Part shown: positions 49,366 through 64,000 of the stretch, piece after piece
Layout of the letters: every line of letters begins with the position of its first letter
Numbering within the stretch: the first letter of the stretch is position 1
IMG/VR virus record: IMGVR_UViG_3300042870_001850
Location: 1-64,000 of that record
Length of the DNA: 64,000 bases
Direction: 5' to 3' (one strand)
From: a virus
The notes under the pieces: model-generated
Told to the model about the DNA's origin: nothing
The model's database searches: none
Seen by the model: only the letters and a program-made list of their open reading frames with translations
Program-made: the position numbers and the translations under genes

Positions 49366-50681
49366 GCATGACATCTGGTGACGTAGAGAGTGGTGGCAAA
49401 CAGCCGACTGCGCCCGTAATTGGCACACCAACTTGGGTATCGAGCACTGTCGCTTCAGTAGCTTTTACTCCGTCAACATATACTGGTAAAGGCACAATCT
49501 CTTACACAGTAACTGCAAGCTCTGGTCAAACTGGAACTGGATCTTCAAGTCCTATTCAAGTCACTGGGTTAACCGCTGGCTCAACAGTTACTTTCACTGT
49601 CACAGCTGTTTCAGTTACTGGCGTTCAGTCTAGTGCATCTGGCACAAGCGCATCGCTTGTCATGGGTATTGCTCCGTCTGCTCCAACAATCGGAACAGCA
49701 TCCATAGTCCAGAACGTCGATAGAAACATTGACGTCCCGTACACTGCAGGATCTACAGGAACCTCTGGCTCTGTAACATACACAGCCACTTCTTCTCCCG
49801 GCGGAATTACAGCAACTGGCGCGTCACCAATTCGCGTCTCTGGTCTTACAGCAGGCACTGCATACACATTTACAGTTACCGCGTCTACAATATACGGCAG
49901 CGCCGCATCTTCTGCATCTAACTCTGTGACTGCAGGAAACAGGCCATCAGGCCTAGCGGCTCCTACTGCTACAAACAACGGCCAGACCAGCGGCTACACT
50001 GTCAGTGTAGGTAGTTGGAGTGGAACAGGGTCAACTACAGGCTTCACTTTTACCGCTTCCACTGGTCAAACTATCAGTACAAGCGGCGGCAGCCCAAGCT
50101 ATTACGAATGGGCTATATCTCCTCTGGGCACCGCGCGAACATTTACGGCTACAGCGACAAACGCTTACGGTACATCGGCAGCATCTGCTGCGTCTGCTGC
50201 AGTGGCAAACGGGTTCAGGCCCGGAGGAAGCGGTGGCCAGTGGAGCAGTTTCTCCATCGCAGCAGGAAACGCCCTAGTAACAGTCACTTTTGCGATGAGT
50301 GCCGGTGGAACCGGAGCAGAAACGTATACTATTCGCGTACATAGAGTGAGTGACGGCGCTGTTATTTCCACTGTCAGTGGTGTCACTGCCTCACCGGTTA
50401 CTTTCACTGGTTTGACGAACGGCACTGCGTACTATGCCCGAGGAACTGCCGTAAACGCCTATGGCACTAGCCTAGACTTTCAGACAGGCAATGTCACCCC
50501 TGTTGCACCTCCGTATTTCCCTCCTTACTTTCCTCCGTATTTCCCTCCTTACTTTCCTCCGTACTTTCCTCCGTACTTTCCTCCGTATTTCCCTCCTTAC
50601 TTCCCACCTTACTTTCCTCCGTATTTCCCACCTTTCTTCCCACCGCACTTCCCACCTTTCTTCCCACCAGGATTTAAGTAA
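49362..50681 (+). CDS. Fn3-like fibre protein with C-terminal PPYF repeats (439 aa)
   Basis: Start set at ATG 49362, overlapping the fibre stop as ATGA. Three to four fibronectin-III-like or related beta domains (APSAPTIGTASI, SGLTAGTAYTFTVTAS, FTGLTNGTAYYARGTAVNAY). The protein ends in 14 tetrapeptides, ten PPYF then PPFF, PPHF, PPFF and PPGF, and a final Lys. A stiff polyproline-type tip or stalk is expected. The gene directly precedes the prolyl-hydroxylase-like array. Confidence 0.75.
   Translation: MSMTSGDVESGGKQPTAPVIGTPTWVSSTVASVAFTPSTYTGKGTISYTVTASSGQTGTGSSSPIQVTGLTAGSTVTFTVTAVSVTGVQSSASGTSASLVMGIAPSAPTIGTASIVQNVDRNIDVPYTAGSTGTSGSVTYTATSSPGGITATGASPIRVSGLTAGTAYTFTVTASTIYGSAASSASNSVTAGNRPSGLAAPTATNNGQTSGYTVSVGSWSGTGSTTGFTFTASTGQTISTSGGSPSYYEWAISPLGTARTFTATATNAYGTSAASAASAAVANGFRPGGSGGQWSSFSIAAGNALVTVTFAMSAGGTGAETYTIRVHRVSDGAVISTVSGVTASPVTFTGLTNGTAYYARGTAVNAYGTSLDFQTGNVTPVAPPYFPPYFPPYFPPYFPPYFPPYFPPYFPPYFPPYFPPYFPPFFPPHFPPFFPPGFK
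50508..50675 (+). repeat. 14-unit 12-nt tandem repeat encoding PPYF-type tetrapeptides
   Basis: 168 nt = 14 x 12. Units differ mostly at third codon positions (CCT/CCG/CCA, TAT/TAC, TTT/TTC), so the protein repeat is conserved while the DNA has drifted. Confidence 0.9.
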
Positions 50682-50708: not shown

Positions 50709-51320
50709 ATGCACGACGACTACAAATTAGAAGCAGCAGATCCAGCTAACATTGTGATCATCGAAAACTTTATTTCTGCTGAACATCTTGATGCTATTTA
50801 TGACTATTGCTACAGCATCACTGAATGGGAATCTCAGTCTATTGCGCAAACTGATAAAATCAGCACGGGCGCAACGATGAAGAAGAATTCGCCAGAAGTC
50901 TATGACATAATGTCGTCATACCTAAATAAAGTGCAAAAGGCTGTTGAATATAAGTTCGGCAGAAAGCTAGAGCCAAGTGTGCCAGGTATTCGTCGCTGGG
51001 ATGCTGGAGAACGCCAAGGGCCGCATGCTGATGGAGAAACAGTGCACGGCGTCGCCACAGACACATATATTGTCGACTACGGTTCAATAATGTATATAAA
51101 TGACAACTACGACGGTGGAGAGCTTTACTTTCCAGCATATGGAATTGACTTTCAACCTAAAGCTGGAACACTTGCATTTTTTCCGTCAAGTACGTACTAC
51201 GTCCACGGCGTAAAAGAAGTGATTGCTGGCGTACGATACACTTCACCGCACTTTTGGGTCCCAACAAAACATAAACGACTAATTGAAATGACAAAAAATG
51301 AACAACAATCAGTCCATTAG
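50709..51320 (+). CDS. P4H-like 2OG-Fe(II) oxygenase, array gene 1 (203 aa)
   Basis: Prolyl-4-hydroxylase-type catalytic core: H106-A-D108 in GPHADG, a strand-loop MYINDNYDGGELYFP, distal H166 in YVHGV and R176 for 2-oxoglutarate. First enzyme after the PPYF-repeat gene, 27 nt downstream, with only a weak ribosome-binding site. No signal peptide, so it would act in the cytoplasm before virion assembly. Overlaps gene 2 by 23 nt. Confidence 0.88.
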   Translation: MHDDYKLEAADPANIVIIENFISAEHLDAIYDYCYSITEWESQSIAQTDKISTGATMKKNSPEVYDIMSSYLNKVQKAVEYKFGRKLEPSVPGIRRWDAGERQGPHADGETVHGVATDTYIVDYGSIMYINDNYDGGELYFPAYGIDFQPKAGTLAFFPSSTYYVHGVKEVIAGVRYTSPHFWVPTKHKRLIEMTKNEQQSVH

Positions 51321-52773
51321 ACCTATATACAATCTTCACATTCCTAGAACATCTGGCACTAATACGCTGTTTGCTCTGCAGCGAGAAATCGCGCGCATGC
51401 CAGAAGCTAATAAGAACAAACTAAATAAGCATAAAGAACCAGAGTACGCGGATCTTAATATGTATACTCCAGACGTCTTAGAGTTCATCTATGACCACGA
51501 CAAGATGAAGAATTATAACTACATCTCAGGACATTTTGCCACAAATCCAATACACGAAATCGACAACTTACTTACGTTTTCTATAGTGAGAAATCCAGTA
51601 GATCAGTTTGTAAGCACTATTGCGTACAGATGCATGACCGCGCGAGTGCCGTTTACTTCACACGAACTGGACCTGTACATAGATGGCATGTACAAAATAT
51701 GGGGAGAATTTGAAGGATTCTCTGGCATTGACAATCCGCAATCGCACTTTCTTTCACAAAAACTTGCCGCGTTCGAGCTAGAAAAAAGCAATAGGGGAAA
51801 CGGAAGCTTAAAAGGAATGGCATTTGTAGGCTCACCGCAAAGTCTTGCCGACGTTCGTCAATTTACAGATGACATGATCATTAGCACACTTGAGAATCGG
51901 CACATTACAATCGATAAAATAAATGTGGTACTGCAAAAACAATTCGGTATCACTATAGAAAACGATACAAGAAAAGTCAATAGCATTATGAAGCTTCGTT
52001 TTGAGATCTCTAAAGATCAAATGAAAAAGATGAAAGCCAAACTAGAACTTGACGAAGAAGTGTACCAGCACGTGAAACAGCAAGAGAAAAACGTGCCAAG
52101 TAGAATAAATAAAGCTAAAAAAGAGCCTCAACAAAAAGTCCAGTTGGCGCCACAAAAAGAGTCAATAGCGCAGATGTTTGGCACAGATTCTTCTATGATA
52201 CGCGTCATTGACAATTTTATTCCTAGCAACGATATCGAGAAGATCGTGGAAATGGCTTCTAAAATAACTGAATGGCGCCACGAAGAGCCTGGAACAGAGT
52301 GGCATGTACGGTTGTCGGATGCTGATAGCCTAGTTAAATTAAATTCAGATACTTACGGTATTCTTGAAACGTACGCAAGGGCAGCCAAGAATTGCGCAGA
52401 AGAACTGTTTAACTGCACTCTTAAGTTTAGAAAACCAGCGCTCGTAAGATGTATAGCAGGAATGCACCAACCGGAGCTGCACACTAACAAACAAAATCTA
52501 GACGGCTATCTTAAAGAAGGAATTGGCGACGGCGATCTGTCAGCTGTCATGTATCTCAATGACGACTTTGAAGGCGGCGAGCTCGTGTTCCCGCAGCACG
52601 ATGTGCGCGTAACACCCACAGCGGGGCGTATTGTAATCTATCCTGGGGACAACGCGTACCTCCACTACGTCGATCAGGTCACTGCCGGTGTTCGCTGGGC
52701 GTGTCCGCTATTCTTTTCAGTAGACGAAGAAGCATGTCAACACACAAAAGAACAAGAGAAAAAAGATGTCTAG
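51298..52773 (+). CDS. Sulfotransferase-like domain fused to P4H-like domain, array gene 2 (491 aa)
   Basis: Residues 1-240 resemble a PAPS-dependent sulfotransferase: LHIPRTSGTN (5' phosphosulfate loop, about 13-22), YISGHF, and FSIVRNPVDQFVS (3' phosphate loop, about 94-106). A charged linker (about 255-295) joins a P4H-like domain. There the first iron pair reads H395-T-N397 instead of HxD, while distal H456 and R466 remain. The Asp-to-Asn change could weaken iron binding or allow another chemistry. The fusion suggests hydroxylation and sulfation act on the same target. Confidence 0.7.
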   Translation: MNNNQSIRPIYNLHIPRTSGTNTLFALQREIARMPEANKNKLNKHKEPEYADLNMYTPDVLEFIYDHDKMKNYNYISGHFATNPIHEIDNLLTFSIVRNPVDQFVSTIAYRCMTARVPFTSHELDLYIDGMYKIWGEFEGFSGIDNPQSHFLSQKLAAFELEKSNRGNGSLKGMAFVGSPQSLADVRQFTDDMIISTLENRHITIDKINVVLQKQFGITIENDTRKVNSIMKLRFEISKDQMKKMKAKLELDEEVYQHVKQQEKNVPSRINKAKKEPQQKVQLAPQKESIAQMFGTDSSMIRVIDNFIPSNDIEKIVEMASKITEWRHEEPGTEWHVRLSDADSLVKLNSDTYGILETYARAAKNCAEELFNCTLKFRKPALVRCIAGMHQPELHTNKQNLDGYLKEGIGDGDLSAVMYLNDDFEGGELVFPQHDVRVTPTAGRIVIYPGDNAYLHYVDQVTAGVRWACPLFFSVDEEACQHTKEQEKKDV

Positions 52774-53389
52774 TCCATGGAAAATTGCACCAGGGCATTT
52801 TGGAGACTCTCCAGAAAACATTGTCACAATAGAGAACTTCGTTGAACTAGAAGATCTTAAAATTATTCAAGAGTTCTGCCCAACTATCAACGAGTGGAAT
52901 AACGAAAAAGAATCCGTGTATGCAGAAGATGGTACATGTCTTTACAATGCAGACTACTGGAATGATCGCCAGTGCAGCAATGATATTCTTGAAAGAATCA
53001 ATCCTCAGGTATGGAACATCATTGACAAATACATAACTAAAATGCAATTGGTCATTGAAGATAAGTTTAATTGCAAAGTAAGTTCTAGACCCCCAGTAAT
53101 CATGAAATGGCGGCCTGGAACTGAACAGCGCCCGCACGCAGACAAGCAATTAAACGATGGCCAACCGAACGCGTTCCCAGACTACGACCTCAACTCATTG
53201 ATTTACTACAATGACGACTTTGAAGGCGGTGATCTTTTCTATCCGCAACACGACATCGTAGTTCGCCCAAAACCTGGCCTCGCGGTGTTTCACCCAGGAG
53301 ATGTAAACTATCTTCACGGAGTGTCAATGGTAACGAGTGGATACCGATACACGACACCGTCTTTCTACACGATTGAAGAATTCATATGA
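52766..53389 (+). CDS. P4H-like 2OG-Fe(II) oxygenase, array gene 3 (207 aa)
   Basis: H124-A-D126, IYYNDDFEGGDLFYPQHDI, H184 and R194 are all in place. The closest-looking relatives are the second domains of genes 2 and 7: shared YxDDGxxLxNAxxW segment (YAEDGTCLYNADYWND) and HADKQ. Stop overlaps gene 4 as ATGA. Confidence 0.88.
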   Translation: MSSPWKIAPGHFGDSPENIVTIENFVELEDLKIIQEFCPTINEWNNEKESVYAEDGTCLYNADYWNDRQCSNDILERINPQVWNIIDKYITKMQLVIEDKFNCKVSSRPPVIMKWRPGTEQRPHADKQLNDGQPNAFPDYDLNSLIYYNDDFEGGDLFYPQHDIVVRPKPGLAVFHPGDVNYLHGVSMVTSGYRYTTPSFYTIEEFI

Positions 53390-53928
53390 TATTCGCAGTT
53401 ATATCAAATTTTATAGATAGAGAAACATGCAACAATCTTACTGATCTTTTATCTACTTGCGAGTGGGAATCAGTTGTAAGAAATGACGTTGACATTTTTA
53501 GCATAATGACAACTGATATTGACGAGATACACGCTATTGGATCAAAGCTGTGGAATGCGCTCGAGTCTCAGGTGTCTAAAGTAGCTAAACGTCAAATCGT
53601 AAAAGAAACGTCGGAGGCGGCACTAGCGTACACACGATATAGCACTGGCCAAGGACTAATGTGGCATTCTGATGGCGGTGACGGCGCGCAGACAAATACA
53701 TCAGGAAGAAAGATCGACGTCTCGGCTATTGTATACTTAAACGATGAGTATAGCGGTGGAGAGTTGTCTATGGCAAAAGCAAATAGCCGAGTAAACAACG
53801 TCTTTATGGTTAAGCCATCTACAGGGGACCTTGTCATAATTGATGGCGCAACGTGGCACGAGGCACTGCCAGTAGCTAGCGGAACAAAATACGTGATGTC
53901 TGCAAGATGGCAGCTAGATCAAGGATAG
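53386..53928 (+). CDS. P4H-like 2OG-Fe(II) oxygenase, array gene 4 (180 aa)
   Basis: Shortest member. H94-S-D96 in LMWHSDGGDG, VYLNDEYSGGELSMA, H158 and Lys168 (Lys instead of Arg for 2-oxoglutarate, as in collagen P4H). Its last codons are part of a 38-bp repeat that recurs before gene 6. Confidence 0.88.
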   Translation: MIFAVISNFIDRETCNNLTDLLSTCEWESVVRNDVDIFSIMTTDIDEIHAIGSKLWNALESQVSKVAKRQIVKETSEAALAYTRYSTGQGLMWHSDGGDGAQTNTSGRKIDVSAIVYLNDEYSGGELSMAKANSRVNNVFMVKPSTGDLVIIDGATWHEALPVASGTKYVMSARWQLDQG

Positions 53929-53940
53929 AACAGTTTTATG
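53903..53940 (+). repeat. 38-bp duplication scar, copy 1
   Basis: Covers the 3' end of array gene 4, the 9-nt gap and the ATG of gene 5; 36 of 38 bases match 54724-54761. Confidence 0.85.
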
Positions 53941-54702
53941 AGTACCCCAGCAAACCCTAACCACATAAAAATAATAGATAATTTCGTAGAACCAGAAGAT
54001 CTTGCAGTGCTCGACAACTTGTGTAGAAGCAATGCAGGCAACGTTTGGTGGAGTGAAAAAAGTATGCCAACGCAGGACTACGTGCATTTTGCACTCGGGG
54101 ATTACAAAGAGCATTGCGCTAAAGCCCGCAGCGAGGGGGCAAATGCAAATGTGCATCCGCTCTTGGGCAAGTACATGAACAAATTAAGAACAATTATTAG
54201 TTACGAAGCCGGGCATCAGCTTGTTCCGATATTTGATTTTTGTCGAATGGAGACACCTGTCGGTGGGTCTTGCCCTGGGCACACAGACTCAGAAGGCCAC
54301 GGTATAACTGGGACAGCGTTTCTTCCAGAGTACTCGCCGCTGCATGTCTATGAGCCAAACTTAATAGATATGTCGGCAAACATTTATGTTAATAACGATT
54401 TTGAAGGCGGTCAGCTCTACTTCGAGCAGTACGACCTCACTGTTAATCATACTCCCGGCCAACTCGTGTGGTTTCCCGGTTCGCATGAATACATGCATGG
54501 TGTTCATGAAATAAAGAGTGGCAGCCCTCGGTGGAATATTATTACTCATTTTGCACGGCCAAAATTGATAGAACTTCACAGTATGATCCACAACATGTAC
54601 GTAAAGCTCAATGAAGATCAAAAAGCCGAATTCCCAGTCTCCTGGGACATAAACACTCACATGCCACGTGGAATTCGTGGAGACAACAACTATGATTACT
54701 AG
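53938..54702 (+). CDS. P4H-like 2OG-Fe(II) oxygenase, array gene 5 (254 aa)
   Basis: H115-T-D117 in CPGHTDSEG, SANIYVNNDFEGGQLYFEQY, H187 in YMHGV and R198 (one residue farther than usual). Extended C-terminal helical tail (HSMIHNMYVKLNEDQKAEF). Clear tandem paralogue of gene 6 along its whole length: NFVEPEDL, NVHPLL, SYEAGH, ARPK. Confidence 0.88.
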   Translation: MSTPANPNHIKIIDNFVEPEDLAVLDNLCRSNAGNVWWSEKSMPTQDYVHFALGDYKEHCAKARSEGANANVHPLLGKYMNKLRTIISYEAGHQLVPIFDFCRMETPVGGSCPGHTDSEGHGITGTAFLPEYSPLHVYEPNLIDMSANIYVNNDFEGGQLYFEQYDLTVNHTPGQLVWFPGSHEYMHGVHEIKSGSPRWNIITHFARPKLIELHSMIHNMYVKLNEDQKAEFPVSWDINTHMPRGIRGDNNYDY

Positions 54703-54723
54703 TGCCATATTAAGCACAATCGT

Positions 54724-54761
54724 CAAGATGGCAGCTAGAACAAGGATAGAATAGTTTTATG
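54724..54761 (+). repeat. 38-bp duplication scar, copy 2
   Basis: Second copy of 53903-53940; here the gene-4 tail codons are non-coding debris between genes 5 and 6, showing the unit was duplicated in tandem. Confidence 0.85.
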
Positions 54762-55541
54762 GAAACAGCAAGCCCAGAGCATATAAAAGTAATTAACAAT
54801 TTTGTTGAGCCTGAAGACCTTAAAATTCTAGATGAACTATGCAGATCATCTGTAAATTATGACGACTTCAAAGATAATGACAAGTGGTGGTTCCATAAAA
54901 AGCCAGGTCCTGAGTACATTAAGCACGCGTCTGGCGCGTACAAGCAGCTGTGCCTTGACTCGATGGAACAGCCGTATGGAAAAAACGTGCACCCATTGCT
55001 TCTTAAATATATGAAGAAACTTGAAAAAGTAGCAAGCTATGAGACCGGCCATAAGCTTGTGCCAATGTTTGGCTTCAACAGGCATCAAACTTTAGAAGGT
55101 GGATTCTGCCCCGGACATCAGGACGCAGAAGCAGAGAAAAACGGTGAAGGCGAATATCTCCCAGAGTATGCGCCACATCACACATTTGAGCCGTGCTTAA
55201 TAGACACATCAGCAAATATCTACATCAATGCAGAGTATGAAGGTGGCCAGCTCGAGTTTGAGCATTACGGAATTAGAATTGAGCACACTCCAGGGCAGCT
55301 TGTTATTTTTCCCGGCGCTCTTGAATACATGCACGGAGTCACACCGATTACTAAAGGCACACGATGGAATCTAATTACACATCTTGCACGACCAAAAGTT
55401 GTTGAAATGCATAGTTTGATCTATAACCTTTACAATGAACTTGGCGAAGACAAGCAAAGTCTATTCCCAGAAGACTGGCGCAATCGCCAAGACCCGAGAG
55501 GAACATTAGGCGAACACGTTCACTGGGAACCAGAGCAGTAA
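54759..55541 (+). CDS. P4H-like 2OG-Fe(II) oxygenase, array gene 6 (260 aa)
   Basis: Tandem duplicate of gene 5. H120-Q-D122 in CPGHQDAE, ANIYINAEYEGGQLEFEHY, H192 and R202. The N-terminal part has insertions relative to gene 5 (DDFKDNDKWWFHKKP). Stop overlaps gene 7 start (TAATG). Confidence 0.88.
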   Translation: METASPEHIKVINNFVEPEDLKILDELCRSSVNYDDFKDNDKWWFHKKPGPEYIKHASGAYKQLCLDSMEQPYGKNVHPLLLKYMKKLEKVASYETGHKLVPMFGFNRHQTLEGGFCPGHQDAEAEKNGEGEYLPEYAPHHTFEPCLIDTSANIYINAEYEGGQLEFEHYGIRIEHTPGQLVIFPGALEYMHGVTPITKGTRWNLITHLARPKVVEMHSLIYNLYNELGEDKQSLFPEDWRNRQDPRGTLGEHVHWEPEQ

Positions 55542-56926
55542 TGAAAGCCACTCCTCTAAATATCGTAAGAATACCTAATTTTTTATCAGATAAAGAAATT
55601 GAATATTTCGTAAATCACTCGCGTTCCTTAGATATCTTAAATGATCCGAATGTTACGTCAAGAGCGATGCTGCGCATCGACGGCGATAAAGACGCTACTG
55701 ACGAAATGCGCGACTACATAGCAAAGGTACAGGAAGCAGTGACATTTCATTGCGGCATGCAAATCACTGATTTGTGCGGAATTGCGCTTAGGAAATGGCT
55801 ACCAGGAGAACTACAAGATCCGCACGCAGACTGTGAAGCAGTGTTTGTCGAAGACTACACTAATTGGCAAATGACCCCGCTTAATAATTTTTCTTCGTTA
55901 TTTATAGAGTACGCTGCGTTGGTGTACCTAAATGACGACTATGAAGGCGGAGAAATCTACTTTCCAGAGTACGACGTAGAAATTAAGCCAAACAAAGGTG
56001 ACTTAATATTCTTTCCCGGCACGCACTACTATATGCACGGCGTTCGCGAAGTACTAAGTGGCCATCGCCTCGCGCTGATGTCGTTTTTTACGACGCCTAA
56101 GCTTCAGTATATTTGGAAGTACTTCGTGCTAGACGATACGCCAATACGTTTTGTCGATCGCACGCAGGACGATGCAATGGCAGGTGTTGGACTATTTAGC
56201 AGAAGCCACATTCCACTTAGTTTAGCTACTTTTGGAGACAAACTGCCAAGTACACTAGACGTTAAAGTGGCGCACAGAGAATTAACTAGCTATAGTTATA
56301 CTAGAAGTCTTTTTGGAACTCATAGGTCTAATATCAACATAGTCCACAATTTTATAGACAAAGACAGCGTTGACGCGTTAATGTGTCTCGCGCATACGAT
56401 AACCGAGTGGAATGACTGCGGAAAAAATGTGTATGACGACGCGGGAGTGCTAATCCACAACGCAGAAGACTGGCGTGATAAGACCTGCGGCGCTGATATT
56501 CTTACGCGCACTGCGCCTGCGGAGTACGCGGTAATGGAAATCTATGCGCTTAAGGCAAAACTTGCTGCTGAAAAATTCTTTAAGTGCAGCCTTAGCTACA
56601 GAAAGCCAGCGCTTGTTAGGTGGAGAGCCGGCGGGCACACACCAGAGCCGCACGCTGACAAACAAAATATAGATGGAACACCTAAGCTCGGAATGGAAGA
56701 CCTAGATGTCTCAGCTGTAATGTATCTAAATGATGACTATGAAGGTGGAGAGCTTGTGTTTCCGCAGCACAACATGAGGTTTAAGCCTGGCCGTGGGTCA
56801 TTGATCTTTTTTCCAGGAGACGACGCGTACATACACTATGTTGATCATGTTAAGACAGGCACAAGATGGGCTATCCCGATGTTTTTTACGGTAGAAGCAA
56901 ATAAAAGTGAGCTGCGCAATGGTTAA
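55541..56926 (+). CDS. Double-domain P4H-like oxygenase, array gene 7 (461 aa)
   Basis: Two complete oxygenase domains in one chain. Domain 1: H95-A-D97, VYLNDDYEGGEIYFPEYDV, H166, R176. Domain 2: H371-A-D373 in EPHADKQNIDG, MYLNDDYEGGELVFPQHN, H432 in YIHYV, R442. Domain 2 is closest to the C-terminal domain of gene 2 (PALVRWRAGG/HxxKQN; HYVDxVxxGxRWA). Both domains keep all catalytic residues, unlike gene 2. Probably arose by fusion of adjacent array genes. Confidence 0.88.
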   Translation: MKATPLNIVRIPNFLSDKEIEYFVNHSRSLDILNDPNVTSRAMLRIDGDKDATDEMRDYIAKVQEAVTFHCGMQITDLCGIALRKWLPGELQDPHADCEAVFVEDYTNWQMTPLNNFSSLFIEYAALVYLNDDYEGGEIYFPEYDVEIKPNKGDLIFFPGTHYYMHGVREVLSGHRLALMSFFTTPKLQYIWKYFVLDDTPIRFVDRTQDDAMAGVGLFSRSHIPLSLATFGDKLPSTLDVKVAHRELTSYSYTRSLFGTHRSNINIVHNFIDKDSVDALMCLAHTITEWNDCGKNVYDDAGVLIHNAEDWRDKTCGADILTRTAPAEYAVMEIYALKAKLAAEKFFKCSLSYRKPALVRWRAGGHTPEPHADKQNIDGTPKLGMEDLDVSAVMYLNDDYEGGELVFPQHNMRFKPGRGSLIFFPGDDAYIHYVDHVKTGTRWAIPMFFTVEANKSELRNG

Positions 56927-57563
56927 TGATGCAAGAACTACAAACGTTGGTTCACAAAAAAACATACTAGTAGTAGAAGACTATCTTTCTAAGTCAATAT
57001 GCAAAGATCTTAGCGAAGCAATGGTGCGTACAGCATGGCGAAGGTGCCGGTCTGACTCAGAAGCCGAAAACTATAACAGCATGCAAAATATATCTTTTTT
57101 AGCAAATGACATGGAAGACGACATTGTAAAAATTGCCAGTTACGAATTCGGCGTAAATTTGTCAGTATTTGCGGGGAAAGGCAATTTCCATAAATGGGAC
57201 GTCGGAGACAGTCTTTCTCTCCACACAGACGCAGAAAAAGAAGACTGTACTGCGCCATTGGCAAGTTACATAGATATGTATCAACCGCCAACTGTTGTTT
57301 CATACACAGCTTTAGTATACATCAACGATGATTACCAAGGTGGCGAGCTTGTGTTTCCGCAGCACGGTCTAAAGATAAAACCTAAATCTGGGACATTAAT
57401 AATGTTCCCATCGACTTGCATGTACCCGCACGAAGTAGCAGAAGTCACCTCTGGAGTTAGGTACACATACTCTATGTTTATGGCTAGCGCTTCTGTAGTT
57501 CAAGCTTTTATGGAAATGTACGCTCTGGTGACGCTAAACGAAGACAGAAAAAACGGCAAATAA
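56919..57563 (+). CDS. P4H-like 2OG-Fe(II) oxygenase, array gene 8 (214 aa)
   Basis: Start set at MVNDARTTNVGSQKNILVVE, overlapping gene 7 by 8 nt. H102-T-D104 in SLHTDAEKEDC, VYINDDYQGGELVFPQHGL, H171 in YPHEVAEV and R181. The HEVAEVTSG version of the distal motif links it to the later members at 61.7-64 kb. Confidence 0.87.
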   Translation: MVNDARTTNVGSQKNILVVEDYLSKSICKDLSEAMVRTAWRRCRSDSEAENYNSMQNISFLANDMEDDIVKIASYEFGVNLSVFAGKGNFHKWDVGDSLSLHTDAEKEDCTAPLASYIDMYQPPTVVSYTALVYINDDYQGGELVFPQHGLKIKPKSGTLIMFPSTCMYPHEVAEVTSGVRYTYSMFMASASVVQAFMEMYALVTLNEDRKNGK

Positions 57564-57644
57564 AGTACGCTGTCAATTAGGAATTTGTACCGCTACTTAG
57601 GTATAGTAGTAAAGACAGCAGCTATACAGCAAAACGGAGTAAAA

Positions 57645-58364
57645 ATGGATTTTCAATACATAGGAGATCAAAAGTTTGGAATTATTCTTTATAAGAATGC
57701 TTTACCAAAAGAACTGCGACTTCCCGAAAGACTAGAAGAAACAATAGGTAATAGCACAACCGCACCGTTTATGTGGATGGAAGCTCTTGTCGGCGATGCG
57801 CAAAAAATGCCCGAGTACCGTGATTGCGTAGACTGCAAGATGGGTCCTACGCATATTCAACATCTTCCTCCGCAGTTTTCTGAAATGAAAAACATTTACA
57901 ATGACACAGTACTTCGCCTAACTGAGTGCTTGCGCGATTACGAGTCTCGGTACAACATAAAAATGGATTTTATGGAAGCGATTAACTACGTCCGCTACCA
58001 TACTGGGCAACATTTCGCTGTGCATACAGATCATGGATTTTCATATAACTGTACTGTTTCTTCAATAATGTATCTAAATGACGGCTATGAGGGTGGCGAA
58101 CTGTACTTCCCATTCTTAGACATCACGGTTGTGCCAGAGTACGGAGACATTGTGTTTTTCCCGTCAACTTACATTTACGCACATGCTGCAAAAGCAGTCA
58201 CTAGCGGTACAAAGTACGCCGCGGTGACTATGTTTGACTATAACGATAGAACGCATAAGCAGGGCTATGGAGAAAATATTGACGGCACTAAAGCCACGGA
58301 AGGCGCTGGACTGCCAACATATGGTAGCCAGCAAAACGCTGATGGAAGATTTTTAGCGCAATGA
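57645..58364 (+). CDS. P4H-like 2OG-Fe(II) oxygenase, array gene 9 (239 aa)
   Basis: Start at MDFQYIGDQKFGIILYKNAL, with CGGAGTAAAA upstream; the longer frame from 57585 is unlikely. H127-T-D129 in AVHTDHGF, MYLNDGYEGGELYFPFLDI, H180 in YAHAA and Lys190. A Gly-rich tail (GENIDGTKATEGAGLPTYGS) follows. ATGA overlap to the DUF6065-like gene. Confidence 0.88.
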   Translation: MDFQYIGDQKFGIILYKNALPKELRLPERLEETIGNSTTAPFMWMEALVGDAQKMPEYRDCVDCKMGPTHIQHLPPQFSEMKNIYNDTVLRLTECLRDYESRYNIKMDFMEAINYVRYHTGQHFAVHTDHGFSYNCTVSSIMYLNDGYEGGELYFPFLDITVVPEYGDIVFFPSTYIYAHAAKAVTSGTKYAAVTMFDYNDRTHKQGYGENIDGTKATEGAGLPTYGSQQNADGRFLAQ

Positions 58365-59062
58365 AAGTGCGCCTCACAAGAAACCACCAGTCTGCGCCAC
58401 GCATTGCGCAGTCTCGCGTTAAGCGCGATTGGATGGATGAAACGTACAACAAGCACGCGTACCAGTGCATGCCTATGACTGCCGCTAATACAAACGGCTG
58501 GGAGTTGATTCTTGAAGAAGATCTTGTTGTCCAATGGGACGGCGGCAACAACCCTGTCACAGTAGTTAGTGGAGGCGAACAAAACGGGCGTCAAGTAGCA
58601 TTTCCTTCTATTATTGGGATCATCTCAATTGGGATGGGTTGGACAGTCAATACTGAAGAAGGCTATGCAACGTGGCTTACCGGGTCTCCTAATTACTTCG
58701 TCGACGGCGCTGTTCCGCTTGCCGCGGCTATTCCCAGTTCATGGTGGCCAGATGAAGTGCAAATGAACTGGAAGATTACTAAAATAGGCGAACCAGTGAC
58801 CTTTCCAGCGGGGTCGCCATTTTGTTTTTTTACCATCTACAAAGAAGATCTACTGCCATCTGTTGAGTTTGAAGTGTCTAACCTATGGGATAAGCCAGAG
58901 CTTATTGAAGCCAGGGTCAAGTACAGCAACGTAAAAATGAAAAATAACGCTGACAACCCGTGGACATGGACTAAGGGAATTAAAACTGGCGTAGATGCTG
59001 ATGGCAATAAGATAGGTCCAGGATTTACTGGAATAAATAAGCTCAACTCTCCGCATATGTGA
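58361..59062 (+). CDS. DUF6065-like protein (233 aa)
   Basis: Segments YQCMPMTAANTNGWELILEE, GNNPVTVVSGGEQNGR, WLTGSPNYFVDGAVPLAAAI and MNWKITKIGEPVTFPAGSPF with FCFFTIYKEDLLPSVEFEV match my memory of DUF6065, a family of unknown function. Its place inside the oxygenase array, coupled by ATGA, suggests a role in the same process. Confidence 0.65.
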   Translation: MKVRLTRNHQSAPRIAQSRVKRDWMDETYNKHAYQCMPMTAANTNGWELILEEDLVVQWDGGNNPVTVVSGGEQNGRQVAFPSIIGIISIGMGWTVNTEEGYATWLTGSPNYFVDGAVPLAAAIPSSWWPDEVQMNWKITKIGEPVTFPAGSPFCFFTIYKEDLLPSVEFEVSNLWDKPELIEARVKYSNVKMKNNADNPWTWTKGIKTGVDADGNKIGPGFTGINKLNSPHM

Positions 59063-59105
59063 TAAGATAGCAAAGTACTAGCTCACCTCAACAAGAATTG
59101 GACAT

Positions 59106-59339
59106 ATGAATATGAAGTTTACTGTAACTCTAACTAATGAAGAAAAAAAGGCAATTTACAGTCGTGCCGTACTAGACTGTGAAAGACATCTCATTACTGC
59201 GCTTATCGCCGAAGGACATGATCCCGATACTTTCGATGAGGCAACATTTGTTCCGGCGGAGACTCTTGGTGATGAATTTATTGCAAGGAATCTAACGCAA
59301 CTTGCTCGCCTTAAAGCCAATGTCGCAGATCTAGGATAA
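59106..59339 (+). CDS. Small hypothetical protein (77 aa)
   Basis: Helical and acidic; MNMKFTVTLTNEEKKAIYSR at the start. Not recognised. First of four short genes interrupting the array. Confidence 0.6.
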   Translation: MNMKFTVTLTNEEKKAIYSRAVLDCERHLITALIAEGHDPDTFDEATFVPAETLGDEFIARNLTQLARLKANVADLG

Positions 59340-59350
59340 TAAGAACTGCC

Positions 59351-59569
59351 ATGGCACTTTCAACAGCCCAAATAGAAAAAGCTAAAGTAAAAGCGTTAGA
59401 CTACCTCGAGTTTTCAATATTCTCAATGGCTTTACTATTAAACGTCGATCTTGAGACTTTAGACGAGACATTTGTAAATCCAGCAGATAAAGACACACAA
59501 CTGGACCTATGGAGTGCATACGAGTCGCTCATTGTTCAAGTAAAGTCGCACGCAAAGTTAGTAGACTAA
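59351..59569 (+). CDS. Small hypothetical protein (72 aa)
   Basis: Helical; the LETLDETFVNPADKD segment resembles PDTFDEATFVPAETL of the preceding 77-aa protein, so the two may be diverged duplicates. Confidence 0.6.
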   Translation: MALSTAQIEKAKVKALDYLEFSIFSMALLLNVDLETLDETFVNPADKDTQLDLWSAYESLIVQVKSHAKLVD

Positions 59570-59571
59570 TT

Positions 59572-59856
59572 ATGAAAATTACTCCTAAGGTGCCTAAAAA
59601 AATTCCACTTCTCGAGGCCGCATTTAAGACTGGTAAGTATCAAATTTGTCCGGACGTCAGTTTTGCCCACCCGCGTATTGTTGAGCCAACGCACAACCCA
59701 GACCGTGACAATCAAGTTGCTCGTTGGGTGCCAGAGCAGTTTTCTTACCAAATGCCAGACGGTGGTACATTTTTTTGCGATCTCTTGCAAAATGGCGACC
59801 CAAAAACACCATGGGACACGACTCAAGCAGATGAGTTAACAGAAGAAGACTTTTAA
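59572..59856 (+). CDS. Hypothetical protein (94 aa)
   Basis: Start at MKITPKVPKKIPLLEAAFKT, 2 nt after the previous stop. Contains DRDNQVARWVPEQFSYQMPD and two Cys; not recognised. Stop overlaps the next ATG. Confidence 0.6.
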   Translation: MKITPKVPKKIPLLEAAFKTGKYQICPDVSFAHPRIVEPTHNPDRDNQVARWVPEQFSYQMPDGGTFFCDLLQNGDPKTPWDTTQADELTEEDF

Positions 59857-60164
59857 TGAAAAGAACAAGAATAACTGCGGGCGAAAACTTGTATGACGCG
59901 ACAAAAGATCTTGAGAGAACAGAAGGAAAACTTTTAGAGCTTATGTACATCGCAGGACTTGATAACACGGACGTCGACACTGTTACAATTGACGAACTTA
60001 TTGAAGCCCTTAGAAAAGGGTTTGTCTATACTTCTGCTGTTGGAAATTCTTATAACGTTGGAGCTACTGCCTTTCTTAGACAAGAAAACTTTCATTTAGT
60101 TATCCAAGCTCGTAAATATTGGTGGTACCGCCAACTTGCAAAAGGAGCACTAAGCCGTGGATAA
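59856..60164 (+). CDS. Hypothetical protein (102 aa)
   Basis: N-terminal helical, basic C-terminal end (VIQARKYWWYRQLAKGALSR). Possibly a small regulator; no family recognised. Confidence 0.6.
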   Translation: MKRTRITAGENLYDATKDLERTEGKLLELMYIAGLDNTDVDTVTIDELIEALRKGFVYTSAVGNSYNVGATAFLRQENFHLVIQARKYWWYRQLAKGALSRG

Positions 60165-60891
60165 CATAGTACTTAGAACAGCGACTGTTACGCGGCTGAT
60201 TAGCAACACGCTTGCCACAAGTACCTTTGAAGAAGGAAAAACGTACCGCGAAGATTCATCTGCACGCGCGTTGGCAGAATACGCTACTTTTAATATTGAC
60301 AGACGGACAGTTGCAATCGGTGGCAGTGAAGAAATCTGGCTATTTGATTTGATGAAAGAAATGGACCCTTCGTGGTACGAAATGATCAACTCAGTGCAGA
60401 CAATAACTGAAATGGCCTTTTTAATGAAAAATCCTCGTAAAATTCTTTCATTTTGTGCATGCATTCCGTCTACTATGTGTTTATGGCTATCAAATATGGC
60501 CGATCCAGAAACTGAATTGACATTTGTCAATAACCCGATGCTTGACGCGTACGAGCAGCACATGATACCTGTCAGTGACACTCACACATATTCAAAGTAT
60601 TCAGTAATTGATTATGATGACTTGGAAAATGGTATTGAAGACAAGTATGATTTTATTGCAGCTATGGCGTGGGACATTGTAAGCGATCCAGATTTGCAAC
60701 GCCAAGCTGTCGATGCACTTGCGCCGGGTGGTATTTTATGTGTTGCTCTTACAAATAATGGAGGCAAGCTGTACACAGACTCGTATCATGCGCATCCATA
60801 CACTGAATTTCATGAGAATCTTGGGAAGATGGACGGGCATACATACCATATTCCGGCCTTGTACGCGCACACACTATTCATAAAGAACTAA
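60157..60891 (+). CDS. Rossmann-fold methyltransferase-like protein (244 aa)
   Basis: GTG start overlapping the previous gene. The C-terminal half has the order of a class I methyltransferase: LTFVNNPMLDAYEQH, KYDFIAAMAWDIVSDPDLQR, QAVDALAPGGILCVALTNNG. The Gly-rich motif I is degenerate (FCACIPSTMCLWLSN), so SAM binding is uncertain. Confidence 0.5.
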   Translation: MDNIVLRTATVTRLISNTLATSTFEEGKTYREDSSARALAEYATFNIDRRTVAIGGSEEIWLFDLMKEMDPSWYEMINSVQTITEMAFLMKNPRKILSFCACIPSTMCLWLSNMADPETELTFVNNPMLDAYEQHMIPVSDTHTYSKYSVIDYDDLENGIEDKYDFIAAMAWDIVSDPDLQRQAVDALAPGGILCVALTNNGGKLYTDSYHAHPYTEFHENLGKMDGHTYHIPALYAHTLFIKN

Positions 60892-61014
60892 TACTTATCG
60901 GCAGCAATGCCGTTGACTGGTTAACGAGTGCCGCAAAAAAACTATCTTCAACGTCTGACATTAGTGCGCCAGTTGCGTTCTTTGATGCTGTTTTAATGTA
61001 TAATTTGCATTGGC
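60892..61014 (+). promoter_or_regulatory. Gap with near-consensus promoter for array gene 10
   Basis: TGTATAAT (extended -10 style) ends 10 nt before the ATG at 61015. The remaining 100 nt hold no gene. Confidence 0.45.
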
Positions 61015-61680
61015 ATGGACACTAAGACGCTTCTTTCTAATTTACAAGTAGTAGATGAATACATACCGAAGAATGATGTCAAAGTTCTTCTTGATTTCTG
61101 TGAATCATTTCACGAGTGGGACAACGGGTATGATAGATGTCCTGATCTTTCAAGCGTTGACATTGATGGCAAATACCGATACGATATTGAAGAAATGCAT
61201 ATAGCGCAAAACCATAGCTATTTGCACCCTCTTGTTCTTAAGTACCAAAAAAAGATAGAAGAGTACGCGAGTGCTGTATACGGAAGATCTCTTACTACGT
61301 ACCACAATATGCATCTTCGCAAGTATTTTGAAGGCGACAAGTTCGACGAGCACTTTGACTCTGAAGGAAAAGACGAAGGCAAGATTCAACGACTGCCAGG
61401 ATACAGCTCTTCTGACAAAGTTCCGGCAGCGCTAATAGAAATTGCAGTTAACATGTATCTAAACGATGATTATTCTGGTGGAGAAATCTACTTTCCAGAT
61501 CACGATGTGTCAATAAAACCAAAACCAGGGCAACTTATAATGTTTCCAGGTGGGCACGAGTTTAAGCACGGAGTCCGCACAGTAACTAGCGGCAGCAGGT
61601 ACACTATGGCTTCGTTTTTGACAACACCTAAGCTACTAATGCTGCACGCGGCAGCGTACAACGGAGCAGCCAGTGAGTAG
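61015..61680 (+). CDS. P4H-like 2OG-Fe(II) oxygenase, array gene 10 (221 aa)
   Basis: H113-F-D115 in DEHFDSEGKDEG, MYLNDDYSGGEIYFPDHDV, H185 in FKHGV and R195. The SYLHPLVLKY and SGSRYTMASFLTTPKLLMLH parts relate it to genes 5-7. Starts a second sub-cluster after the DUF6065 and small-gene interruption. Confidence 0.88.
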   Translation: MDTKTLLSNLQVVDEYIPKNDVKVLLDFCESFHEWDNGYDRCPDLSSVDIDGKYRYDIEEMHIAQNHSYLHPLVLKYQKKIEEYASAVYGRSLTTYHNMHLRKYFEGDKFDEHFDSEGKDEGKIQRLPGYSSSDKVPAALIEIAVNMYLNDDYSGGEIYFPDHDVSIKPKPGQLIMFPGGHEFKHGVRTVTSGSRYTMASFLTTPKLLMLHAAAYNGAASE

Positions 61681-62527
61681 CGCACATCATCTAGGCGGAG
61701 GGACTGTAGTATTCCGCAACGCAATCACAGTTCCGCAAAATACAATTATCCCGTATCTTGAAGAACTAAAAGAACAGTCACGCAGCGAAATGTTTACTAT
61801 CGTCAAAGATGAAGACGGCAATCCACTGCATGCTCTTAATCAAGGTGGGTTTATCTACGATCTTGAAAAGATCAATCGCGCTCCGGTTCGAATGATGAAC
61901 CTTACGCATCCGTTTTTCCAAGAGTGTGAGAATGCTTTGTATGACGCGCTTTTGCAGTACATTGAAATGTTTCCTGCAGTTCTTCAGTCTCTGTGGTGGA
62001 GAAGTGAGGGCCACATTCTTGCGTATGACAAAGGCGCTGCTCTAGGATTTCATTCAGACAACGACGTCAACTACCGCTACGGTGCAGTTCCGCCTACAGA
62101 GCACGCAACACGGAATGTGCTAAGCGCGTTGATCTATTTCAATGACTGCATTGATGAAGGCGAAGAAGAGACTCAGTATTCTTTTTCTGGCGGCCACATG
62201 AGTGTTCCGTACTTTAATGCGGACATCAAACCGCGCACGGGGGACATTTGCATGATGCCAGCAAACTACATCGGTGCTCACGAGATTGCAGAAGTCACGC
62301 GAGGCACTAGATACTCATATCTTGGGTGGTTTGCGCAGGGATCAGAAGACGCCAATAAAGGAGTAAATCCTCAGCATGAGAAAATGTCTGAATCGATTGG
62401 CGGACAATACTGGATGAAAACAATTATTGAAGACTATGAAAAGTATATCTATGACAAATATCCGGACAATGCTACTAGGCCTTCGCATCTTCTTGCAGTG
62501 TCTAATAGACAGAAGGACCACGTGTGA
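61673..62527 (+). CDS. P4H-like 2OG-Fe(II) oxygenase, array gene 11 (284 aa)
   Basis: GTG start overlapping gene 10. HLGGGTVVFRNAI at the N-terminus, H127-S-D129 in GFHSDNDVNYRYG, IYFND with an acidic insertion (CIDEGEEETQYSF) before the usual G-G, H203 in GAHEIAEV and R213. With genes 12 and 13 it forms a distinct subfamily marked by an HLGxGxVxFxNAL opening and an EMFP segment. Confidence 0.86.
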   Translation: MSSAHHLGGGTVVFRNAITVPQNTIIPYLEELKEQSRSEMFTIVKDEDGNPLHALNQGGFIYDLEKINRAPVRMMNLTHPFFQECENALYDALLQYIEMFPAVLQSLWWRSEGHILAYDKGAALGFHSDNDVNYRYGAVPPTEHATRNVLSALIYFNDCIDEGEEETQYSFSGGHMSVPYFNADIKPRTGDICMMPANYIGAHEIAEVTRGTRYSYLGWFAQGSEDANKGVNPQHEKMSESIGGQYWMKTIIEDYEKYIYDKYPDNATRPSHLLAVSNRQKDHV

Positions 62528-63408
62528 TGCAAAATAACAACGTAGAAGCTCAACATCTTGGCGGCGGAGTTGTCTTATTTAAGAACGCTCTTAAGTGGGA
62601 CTGGGACAAAGTAATAGATCTCGCTGAAGAAATATGTGCAAGAGAGCACAGCAGTATGTATACTGAGTCTGTCGATCCCGAAACTGGAGAATTTGCTTAT
62701 CTTAATCGAAGTGGTTTTTACTTTAGACCGGAGTCTGTTGATGAAATGCCGCGCCGTGGGTCTCGTATTCATCAAGACGATAGACCAGAGGTTGTTGAAT
62801 TTTTGACTTTTCTAGAAGAAGCTAGAGATTCTTATTTGATGAAGTACATGGAAATGTTTCCTATTGCGTTCAAAACGATTTGGTGGAAAATTAAAGGTCA
62901 TATAGTTTCATACAAACCTGGCGGGTATCTAGGCCCACATTCAGACACCAGCTCTGACTGGGCTTACGGAGTTCACGAGCCTAAGGATCAGCTCGCAACT
63001 CGGACAACTGTAGCTTCGCTTATTTACTTTAATAGCTCAGTTGACACTGAAAAAGAATTAGACGGATCAAACTTCACAGCTGGGCATCATTACTTTAACT
63101 ACCTTGATATTTTAGTCAAACCAGAACGTGGCGATCTTTTAATGTTCCCGTCAAACTATATGGGAGCGCACGAAGTGCAGCCTGTCGGCGCAGGAATTAG
63201 GTACTCATATCTTGGTTGGTACTCGCACGGCACGCCAAATCCAGCAGTAAGTGAAAGTGTTACAGACCCTCTTACTGAGCCAGAGCTTGCGAAAATCGCA
63301 ACTAACGTGTACATGCCGTATCTTAAGCGTGACTTCGTGGCACACTTAAAGAGCAAAGGTATGACTAGCGTAGACATCCCTGGCTTTACTTTTGGAGATG
63401 AGCAATGA
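62527..63408 (+). CDS. P4H-like 2OG-Fe(II) oxygenase, array gene 12 (293 aa)
   Basis: ATG 62527 (or GTG 62524). Same subfamily as gene 11: HLGGGVVLFKNAL, YMEMFPIAFKTIWW, H138-S-D140, H215 in GAHEVQPV and R225, RYSYLGWY. ATGA overlap to gene 13. Confidence 0.86.
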   Translation: MQNNNVEAQHLGGGVVLFKNALKWDWDKVIDLAEEICAREHSSMYTESVDPETGEFAYLNRSGFYFRPESVDEMPRRGSRIHQDDRPEVVEFLTFLEEARDSYLMKYMEMFPIAFKTIWWKIKGHIVSYKPGGYLGPHSDTSSDWAYGVHEPKDQLATRTTVASLIYFNSSVDTEKELDGSNFTAGHHYFNYLDILVKPERGDLLMFPSNYMGAHEVQPVGAGIRYSYLGWYSHGTPNPAVSESVTDPLTEPELAKIATNVYMPYLKRDFVAHLKSKGMTSVDIPGFTFGDEQ

Positions 63409-64000
63409 ACATCAACCACTTAGGCAACGGCATTGTTCTTTTTGAGAATGCGTTAGACGTTGACGACGATTTAGTGTCTTCATATATGTCGTACTTGCAA
63501 TCAACAAACAAAGAAGTGCACTTTTTTAACACAGACGATTCTTCTGAAGTTGTAAATACTTCAGGCTACAAGTTTGACAAGAATGAAGTAAATCTAGCAC
63601 CTGACAGATTTATAAGAACTGTGACGAACAGTACTCCAAAAGAATTCGTTGATCTTGTACAGCGCTACGAGGATGTTCTATACTTATGCTTAGTTGAGTA
63701 CTGCAAGATTTTTCCTGTCGCTGTTGAGGCGATAACATGGAGATCGCGTGGAAGTATAGCAACGTACAAGAATGGCCAGCATATTGGGTGCCACTCAGAC
63801 TCGTCCGTTCCGTGCGTGATTGGCGAAATGCCGTCTAATCAAATTGCGTTACACACGACACTCACTGCAAGCCTTGTCATGAACAGCGATTTTGTAGGTG
63901 GAGAAATTGGATTTAGAGCTTGGGGAACGGTGGTTGACGTAGGAGCTGGAAGCATTCTGTATTACCCGTCTACGTACGTTGGCGCTCACGAGGTTCTTCC
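63405..64000 (+). CDS. P4H-like 2OG-Fe(II) oxygenase, array gene 13 (partial)
   Basis: Runs off the window after 198 codons. Opens MNINHLGNGIVLFENALDVD, has H130-S-D132 in IGCHSDSS, MNSDFVGGEIGF and distal His195 in GAHEVL before the cut; the 2-oxoglutarate Arg lies beyond the edge. Shows that the array continues past 64 kb. Confidence 0.83.
   Translation, partial: MNINHLGNGIVLFENALDVDDDLVSSYMSYLQSTNKEVHFFNTDDSSEVVNTSGYKFDKNEVNLAPDRFIRTVTNSTPKEFVDLVQRYEDVLYLCLVEYCKIFPVAVEAITWRSRGSIATYKNGQHIGCHSDSSVPCVIGEMPSNQIALHTTLTASLVMNSDFVGGEIGFRAWGTVVDVGAGSILYYPSTYVGAHEVL

What the first reader, a model, noticed from the sequence alone, without database searches (positions are those of the whole stretch)
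50709..64000. Array of at least 13 tandem prolyl-4-hydroxylase-like 2OG-Fe(II) oxygenase genes in a phage genome
Seen: 13 genes (14 domains) in one direction, most overlapping, each with an HxD...H-x(10)-R/K core and an N-D-x-x-x-G-G-E/D/Q-L strand. Four more 2OG-Fe(II) enzymes lie at 22.3, 34.1, 34.8 and 37.0 kb. Known: phages, especially cyanophages, carry single or a few such genes. Inference: this degree of amplification and divergence looks like a specialised modification or diversification system, perhaps with one enzyme per substrate site or alternative enzymes under host-driven selection. The array is open at the right edge.
Basis: partly seen in the sequence, partly recalled or inferred. 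Interest (0 to 1): 0.92.

Follow-up and report, generated by a model that had tools for sequence, protein, structure and literature searches.

The report
Phage prolyl-hydroxylase array beside tail repeats
A phage carries a row of 13 prolyl-hydroxylase-like genes directly behind a tail-fibre-like gene that ends in a string of Tyr/Phe-Phe-Pro-Pro repeats, and many other uncultivated phages show the same pairing, so these enzymes most likely hydroxylate the phage's own tail repeats.

Summary
There are 13 same-strand genes (14 domains) of the 2OG-FeII_Oxy_3/prolyl-hydroxylase type at 50709-64184. The last gene ends 184 bases past the window and closes the array. Thirteen of the 14 domains keep HxD...H...R/K.

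The array is not unique. Sets of 5-15 such genes occur in many uncultivated viral contigs. They combine a conserved core (A3, A9, A11-A13) with lineage-specific local duplicates.

The key finding is upstream. The gene 27 bases before the array has an fn3 match and ends in 13 (Y/F/H)-F-P-P units. Searching viral contigs for four ([YF]FPP) units, blind to oxygenases, gave 118 loci. Of their contigs, 105 carry PF13640 genes, usually within 2 kb. For a collagen-like (GPT)4 control the figure is 7 of 40. Within the window's own phage clade, the only one of 16 contigs with the repeat carries 11 oxygenases; the other 15 carry 0-2. The core enzyme A3 models as a peptidyl prolyl hydroxylase; its closest solved fold is chlorella-virus vCPH.

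Best reading: a tail-repeat hydroxylation module, with a sulfotransferase-like domain fused to one enzyme. Substrate, products and purpose are inferred, not shown. I found no description of the repeats or of such arrays in the open papers searched.

The parts
49335..50681 (+). Candidate substrate: fn3-containing, tail-fibre-like protein; C-terminus (about 50514-50681) is APPYFPPYF...PPFFPPHFPPFFPPGFK, 13 [YFH]F-PP units
   Evidence: fn3 by Pfam; repeat and synonymously varied DNA; conserved position upstream of arrays in related loci
50709..51320 (+). A1, 2OG-FeII_Oxy_3; orthologous group shared with 3 of 12 compared phages
   Evidence: PF13640 E 7.5e-8; tree
51298..52773 (+). A2, N-terminal sulfotransferase-like domain fused to a 2OG oxygenase domain whose HxD motif is HTN
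   Evidence: PF13640 E 2.9e-9 for residues 405-473; family profile matches heparan-sulfate 6-O-sulfotransferase E 4.9e-8; motif
52766..53389 (+). A3, most widely conserved core prolyl-hydroxylase-like enzyme
   Evidence: in 13 of 13 compared phages; model pLDDT 94.6; Foldseek best match PBCV-1 vCPH, then P3H1, Bacillus and Chlamydomonas P4H, PHD2
53386..53928 (+). A4, 2OG-FeII_Oxy_3
   Evidence: PF13640 E 1.9e-12
53938..54702 (+). A5, 2OG-FeII_Oxy_3; 52% identical to A6 (local duplicate)
   Evidence: PF13640 E 9e-5, under cut-off
54759..55541 (+). A6, 2OG-FeII_Oxy_3
   Evidence: PF13640 E 1.3e-6
55541..56926 (+). A7, two 2OG-FeII_Oxy_3 domains
   Evidence: PF13640 E 1.2e-21, two stretches
56907..57563 (+). 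A8, 2OG-FeII_Oxy_3
   Evidence: PF13640 E 1.2e-11
57585..58364 (+). A9, second core enzyme, found with A3 in most loci
   Evidence: PF13640 E 5.1e-12
58361..59062 (+). DUF6065 protein, co-occurs with the array
   Evidence: PF19541 E 8.8e-43; in 109 of 146 loci with repeat and oxygenase
59509..60891 (+). three ORFs of unknown family inside the array (59509-59856, 59856-60164, 60157-60891)
   Evidence: no Pfam match
61015..61680 (+). A10, 2OG-FeII_Oxy_3
   Evidence: PF13640 E 1.5e-10
61673..62527 (+). A11, core enzyme
   Evidence: PF13640 E 4.9e-9; conserved order A11-A12-A13
62524..63408 (+). A12, core enzyme
   Evidence: PF13640 E 6.9e-11; tree clade with support 1.0
63405..64000 (+). A13, core enzyme; completes at base 64184 of the record, followed by a glutathione-peroxidase-like gene
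   Evidence: PF13640 over cut-off with full frame; L009; GSHPx

Best explanation
The array is a protein-modification module for the phage's own tail. The upstream gene makes a tail-fibre-like protein ending in (Y/F/H)-F-P-P repeats. The array enzymes, using Fe(II), O2 and 2-oxoglutarate, hydroxylate prolines of those repeats (possibly at different positions, 3- or 4-hydroxylation, with some members acting on other residues or tail proteins). The fused sulfotransferase-like domain may then sulfate hydroxyl groups. The modified stretch would be a stiff or more soluble, hydroxyproline-rich tip of the virion that touches the host or environment. Shown: enzyme family, intact active sites, prolyl-hydroxylase-like fold of the core enzyme, purifying selection, operon-like spacing, and reciprocal co-occurrence with the repeats. 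Inferred: that the repeat is the substrate, the chemistry of each enzyme, that the protein is in the virion, and the benefit.
For: (1) 13/13 proteins match PF13640; 627 of 639 non-redundant domains keep HxD/E...H...R/K, and those inspected among the 12 exceptions are mostly cut by contig ends. (2) A3 model, pLDDT 94.6: best PDB folds are PBCV-1 viral collagen prolyl hydroxylase, P3H1, Bacillus P4H, Chlamydomonas P4H, PHD2; its profile finds P3H1 and Bacillus P4H. (3) Repeat tract 27 bases upstream, in one tightly packed gene run. (4) Forward: 81 of 95 oxygenase-seeded loci show the repeat or a close variant; of the 14 without, most begin at a contig end inside or just before the array. (5) Reverse: 85 of 118 repeat-seeded stretches contain these enzymes versus 15 of 119 for (GPT)4 (p 1.5e-21); 73 versus 9 within 2 kb; whole contigs 105 of 118 versus 7 of 40. 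(6) Within-clade: of 16 primase-related contigs only G001 has the repeat and it has 11 enzymes; 15 others have 0-2. (7) dN far below dS where dS is measurable. (8) In some other phages the tract precedes Peptidase_S74 or a weak Hint/intein-like match. (9) The four-unit repeat is nearly absent from 257 Gb of prokaryotic genomes: 4 stretches, 2 of them with such enzymes alongside on small MAG contigs.
Against: No biochemical or proteomic evidence. Number of repeat units does not track number of enzymes, so why 5-15 enzymes are needed is unexplained. 13 of 118 repeat contigs show no PF13640 match, some of them over 30 kb (G024, G049, G064, G076, G078). Several repeat contigs have only one copy. 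Co-occurrence could reflect shared descent of a late-gene block; the within-clade test rests on a single repeat-positive contig (p 0.06), and the 118 loci were not corrected for relatedness. A prolyl-hydroxylase-like fold does not prove proline as target; lysyl hydroxylase LH3 and PiuC also match.
Confidence: 0.62

Rival explanations
1. The enzymes modify other phage or host proteins (other tail-fibre sites, or host factors such as EF-Tu); the FPP repeat is an unrelated neighbour in the same late-gene block.
For: The array has many divergent members, each possibly with its own target; a conserved tail-fibre gene cluster also neighbours the arrays in 104 of 146 loci; PDB entry 5v7y among the fold matches is titled 'Prolyl 4-Hydroxylase Interacts with and Modifies Elongation Factor Tu'.
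Against: Repeat and array find each other in both directions and far more than with another proline-rich tail repeat; contigs with the repeat next to a single P4H-like gene also exist.
Confidence: 0.2
2. The oxygenases are metabolic: they consume 2-oxoglutarate to shift host nitrogen signalling, as proposed for cyanophage 2OG-Fe(II) genes (PMC3037559), or scavenge oxygen.
For: Cyanophages carry several such genes and this role was proposed.
Against: Does not need 13 divergent, individually conserved enzymes, nor placement behind a proline-repeat tail gene; core enzyme resembles peptidyl hydroxylases.
Confidence: 0.05
3. Nucleic-acid modification (TET/JBP-like base hydroxylation or AlkB-like repair).
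For: Weak Tet_JBP matches for A1, A6, A7, A8.
Against: All Tet_JBP scores are under Pfam's cut-off; PF13640 fits better for nearly all; fold matches of A3 are protein hydroxylases; location is with tail genes.
Confidence: 0.04
4. Biosynthetic oxygenases making a small-molecule or glycan decoration (for example PhyH- or halogenase-type chemistry).
For: PhyH-type enzymes elsewhere in the genome and weak WelO5 matches.
Against: WelO5 matches are under cut-off and cover only a C-terminal stretch; no biosynthetic scaffold genes seen in the array; HxD carboxylate intact in 13 of 14 domains, unlike halogenases (halogenase motif from general knowledge).
Confidence: 0.05

Closest known systems
PBCV-1 (chlorella virus) viral collagen prolyl hydroxylase vCPH (PDB 5c5t/5c5u)
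   Same: Virus-encoded peptidyl prolyl hydroxylase; best fold match of A3. Eriksson 1999, cited in PMC9301287, is titled evidence for 4-hydroxyproline in viral proteins, with peptide substrates; from memory the peptides are proline-rich viral repeats.
   Different: Single enzyme of an algal virus; here 5-15 paralogues in phages, beside a [YFH]F-PP tail repeat; only about 15% sequence identity.
Cyanophage 2OG-Fe(II) oxygenase genes
   Same: Same superfamily; up to 5 copies per genome (PMC3037559); PHROG 61 proteins resemble EGLN3 (PMC12774648).
   Different: In the four marine phage regions read, no such repeat was seen near the gene and only one or two such genes were present; only distant similarity to the array.
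Viral P4HA (K00472) 'auxiliary metabolic gene'
   Same: Abundant in Baltic Sea viral contigs; collagen in viral tail fibres is mentioned (PMC9301287).
   Different: That paper calls the use 'cryptic' and describes neither arrays nor the FPP repeat in the passages read.
Plant and algal extensin-type hydroxyproline-rich proteins with P4H
   Same: Would work alike in principle: proline-rich repeats hydroxylated by several P4Hs; a Chlamydomonas P4H is among the fold matches.
   Different: No membership tested; eukaryotic cell-wall system (from general knowledge).

Membership tests
2OG-FeII_Oxy_3 (PF13640) | Profile match over Pfam's gathering score | tested here: met
   11 of 13 genes over cut-off, A3 and A5 just under
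2OG-FeII_Oxy_3 (PF13640) | Fe-binding HxD...H and 2OG-binding R/K | tested here: met
   13 of 14 domains in the window; 627 of 639 in related loci; A2 domain HTN fails
Peptidyl prolyl hydroxylase (P4H/P3H-like) | Fold closest to solved prolyl hydroxylases | tested here: met
   A3 only: top Foldseek matches vCPH, P3H1, P4H, PHD2
Peptidyl prolyl hydroxylase (P4H/P3H-like) | Hydroxylates peptidyl proline | not testable with these tools
   needs enzyme assay or virion proteomics
Sulfotransferase (A2 N-terminal domain) | Profile similarity to solved sulfotransferases and PAPS-site-like motifs (HIPRTSG, VREPV) | tested here: met
   HS6ST3 E 4.9e-8 and sulfotransferase 5x2b E 1e-4; invariant P16, G20, R98, S106; no Pfam match to the single sequence
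Collagen-like phage tail proteins | G-X-Y repeats | tested here: not met
   Repeat is [YFH]F-PP without glycine
TET/JBP DNA oxygenases (PF12851) | Profile match over cut-off | tested here: not met
   best 30.8 bits against 34.9

The most novel reading that the evidence does not exclude
A large, uncultivated group of tailed phages builds hydroxyproline-rich (possibly hydroxylated at several positions and sulfated) tail tips by means of a dedicated multi-enzyme module, a multi-enzyme tail-maturation system not described in prokaryotic viruses as far as I could find.
Probability: 0.5. Interest if true: 0.9.

Novelty: new variant of a known kind. Interest (0 to 1): 0.78.

Why it matters
Viral P4H genes are among the commonest 'auxiliary metabolic genes' reported from the Baltic water column, and their use is described as cryptic (PMC9301287). 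This gives at least one large group of them a concrete, testable substrate inside the virus, which would move them from host metabolism to virion maturation. It would also be a source of many prolyl hydroxylases with a simple repeat peptide substrate, and would make tail maturation in these phages depend on oxygen and 2-oxoglutarate.

Tried and rejected
Recent in-place amplification as the whole story: rejected, since A3, A9, A11, A12 and A13 have orthologues in distant phages; only A5/A6, A2c/A7b and A8-type members look like local duplicates. One enzyme per repeat unit: no correlation. Sulfotransferase acting on repeat tyrosines: no association of tyrosine share with the domain (p 0.20). Glycosyltransferase partners as in plant extensins: none of the recurrent neighbour clusters scanned matched a glycosyltransferase family in Pfam. 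DUF6065 as another oxygenase: its model (pLDDT 92.6) gives only weak dUTPase-like matches, TM 0.4 by query length, so its role stays open. Primase-flank loci as a base-rate control (1 of 80) are weak because in the window the array lies 10 kb from the primase; replaced by whole-contig searches. The apparent exception L088 (14 enzymes in its contig, no exact repeat) has a PYFP/PYFPP variant. Cultured phages: no hit for DUF6065 or the fn3 part of the repeat protein, only distant cyanophage/marine oxygenases. Text search for the repeat motif and DUF6065 found no paper.
Full report
OBSERVATION. The window is bases 1-64000 of an 83,311-base viral record; the record completes the 13th gene at 64184 and holds no PF13640 match beyond it. 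The count of 13 genes and 14 domains is therefore final for this record. Iron-binding HxD...H and the distal R/K are present in 13 of 14 domains; the oxygenase half of A2 has H-T-N. That gene also carries an N-terminal domain whose family profile finds solved sulfotransferases. The four additional enzymes are PhyH, PF13640, PF13759 and PhyH types.

HOST AND CONTEXT. The same record encodes a WhiB protein, taken in the freshwater-phage literature as a mark of actinobacterial hosts (PMC6802176). Its primase is 83% identical to that of a lake-metagenome phage assigned to Actinomycetia, DSL-LC01, and about 52% to Microbacterium phages (PMC10611076). Upstream of the array lie tail-fibre-like genes, one with an Mtd_N domain. 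A freshwater actinobacterial host is thus likely, by inference. The habitats of the other contigs were not checked.

THE NEIGHBOUR THAT EXPLAINS MOST. The gene ending 27 bases before the array (49335-50681) has fn3 similarity and ends in PPYF x10, PPFF, PPHF, PPFF, PPGFK. The units are written with varied synonymous codons, so the protein sequence, not the DNA, appears to be kept. The repeat gene, A1-A9 and a DUF6065 gene are packed with gaps of at most 56 bases.

RECIPROCAL TEST. Loci fetched by an oxygenase query show the repeat, or a close variant, in 81 of 95 cases. Most of the 14 exceptions begin at a contig end in or just before the array, as expected if assemblies break in the repeat. 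Of these, 85 contain the enzymes, 73 within 2 kb of the repeat. A collagen-like (GPT)4 pattern scanned in the same collection gave 15 of 119 and 9 of 119 (p 1.5e-21 and 7.6e-20). Searching whole contigs of the 33 negatives added 20, giving 105 of 118; the control gave 7 of 40. The same pattern in 257 Gb of bacterial and archaeal genomes gave 4 stretches. In the Verrucomicrobiales MAG all 8 oxygenase matches lie on the one 25-kb repeat-bearing contig, and in the Gammaproteobacteria MAG 6 lie on a 14-kb repeat-bearing contig, so both look like binned phage.

WITHIN-CLADE TEST. To ask whether this is only shared descent, I searched 16 contigs (30-136 kb) carrying a primase related to that of the window. 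Fifteen have no repeat and carry 0-2 PF13640 genes; the one with the repeat, G001, carries 11. One positive contig is thin evidence (p 0.06) but the direction is right. The array-bearing contigs outside this set nearly all have the repeat (10 of 11), and the exception has a PYFP/PYFPP mixture.

EVOLUTION. Gene order with orthology is shared with contig G001: A1, A3, A5, A7a, A7b, A8, A9, A11, A12, A13. In a tree of 116 domains from 13 phages, the A3 clade includes all 13 phages (support 0.96). A12 groups 8 phages (1.0) and A13 7 (0.94). A11 and A9 groups are wide but with low support at their base (0.53, 0.48). A5/A6, the A2c/A7b group and A8 show lineage-specific duplication. Between close variants dN is far below dS for array genes wherever dS is measurable. 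The array is thus old, functional and partly expanded in place.

ENZYME IDENTITY. The A3 family profile finds prolyl 3-hydroxylase 1 and Bacillus P4H by sequence. The A3 model (pLDDT 94.6) matches chlorella-virus prolyl hydroxylase vCPH best, then P3H1, Bacillus and Chlamydomonas P4H and PHD2. Lysyl hydroxylase LH3 and PiuC are also in the list, so proline is the likely but not the only possible target. Only A3 was modelled.

MODULE CONTENT. Within 146 loci having both repeat and enzymes, recurrent neighbours are DUF6065 (109 loci), the repeat protein (105), tail-fibre-like proteins (104), a glutathione-peroxidase-like protein (56), an unidentified protein (56) and the sulfotransferase-like domain (37). 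Among 103 distinct tracts the unit is mostly FF, YF, HF or WF followed by PP, median 12 units. Some tracts lie before Peptidase_S74 (L217, E 3.7e-11) or a weak Hint/intein-like region (L246, L264; below cut-off). In 147 of 200 tract ORFs the tract is within 60 residues of the C-terminus. This fits a tract that ends the mature tail protein; that step is inference.

MECHANISM PROPOSED. Hydroxylation of the tail repeat by the array, in trans, before or during tail assembly. Hydroxyproline would stiffen the proline-rich tip or change its solubility or adhesion; A2 may add sulfate. Steps shown: enzyme family, fold of the core enzyme, linkage, selection. Steps inferred: substrate, products, virion location, benefit. 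The enzyme number is not explained by repeat number. Different prolines, different ring carbons, or other tail sites are possible reasons.

KNOWN WORK. Cyanophages carry up to five 2OG-Fe(II) genes, interpreted as nitrogen signalling or DNA repair (PMC3037559). Viral P4HA is abundant in the Baltic with use called cryptic, and collagen in viral tail fibres mentioned (PMC9301287). Phage 2OG enzymes resemble EGLN3 (PMC12774648). None of the passages read describes arrays or the FPP repeat, and a text search for the motif found nothing. Subscription papers and preprints were not searchable, so absence of a description is provisional.

Noticed in passing
window 58361-59062; 109 related loci: DUF6065 (PF19541) is a near-constant partner of the array; model is confident (pLDDT 92.6) but gives only weak dUTPase-like fold matches, so its role is open.
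   Followed up: partly
record 64213-64833 (L009:902-1522): A glutathione-peroxidase-like gene follows the array and occurs near it in 56 of 146 related loci; perhaps protection against peroxide from uncoupled oxygenase turnover.
   Followed up: partly
window 51298-52773: The oxygenase half of A2 has HTN instead of HxD while related domains in other contigs keep HAD; possibly an inactive binding module fused to the sulfotransferase-like domain.
   Followed up: partly
L190:3762-5012, L246:8066-9304, L264:3560-6478, L217:1085-1771: In other phages the FPP tract is followed by Hint/intein-like (weak) or Peptidase_S74 domains, suggesting self-processing that leaves the repeat as the mature C-terminus.
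   Followed up: partly
L308, L310, L342, L373 and others in the (GPT)4 control set: 15 of 119 collagen-like stretches also hold a P4H-like gene, above the primase-region set (1 of 80, though that set is a weak base rate); collagen-like tails may have their own hydroxylases.
   Followed up: no
L303 (DUCD01000215.1), L304 (PBNR01000074.1): Contigs in Verrucomicrobiales and Gammaproteobacteria MAGs carry the enzymes plus repeats and look like phage contigs binned into bacterial genomes.
   Followed up: partly
window 45379-49365: Long tail-fibre-like protein with an Mtd_N (major tropism determinant N-terminal) domain; no search for a diversity-generating retroelement was made.
   Followed up: no
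window 17566-20916 and 4649-6457: Large ORFs of 1116 and 602 aa without any PHROG match.
   Followed up: no
window 60157-60891: ORF inside the array without Pfam match; by eye its C-terminal half resembles a SAM-methyltransferase.
   Followed up: partly
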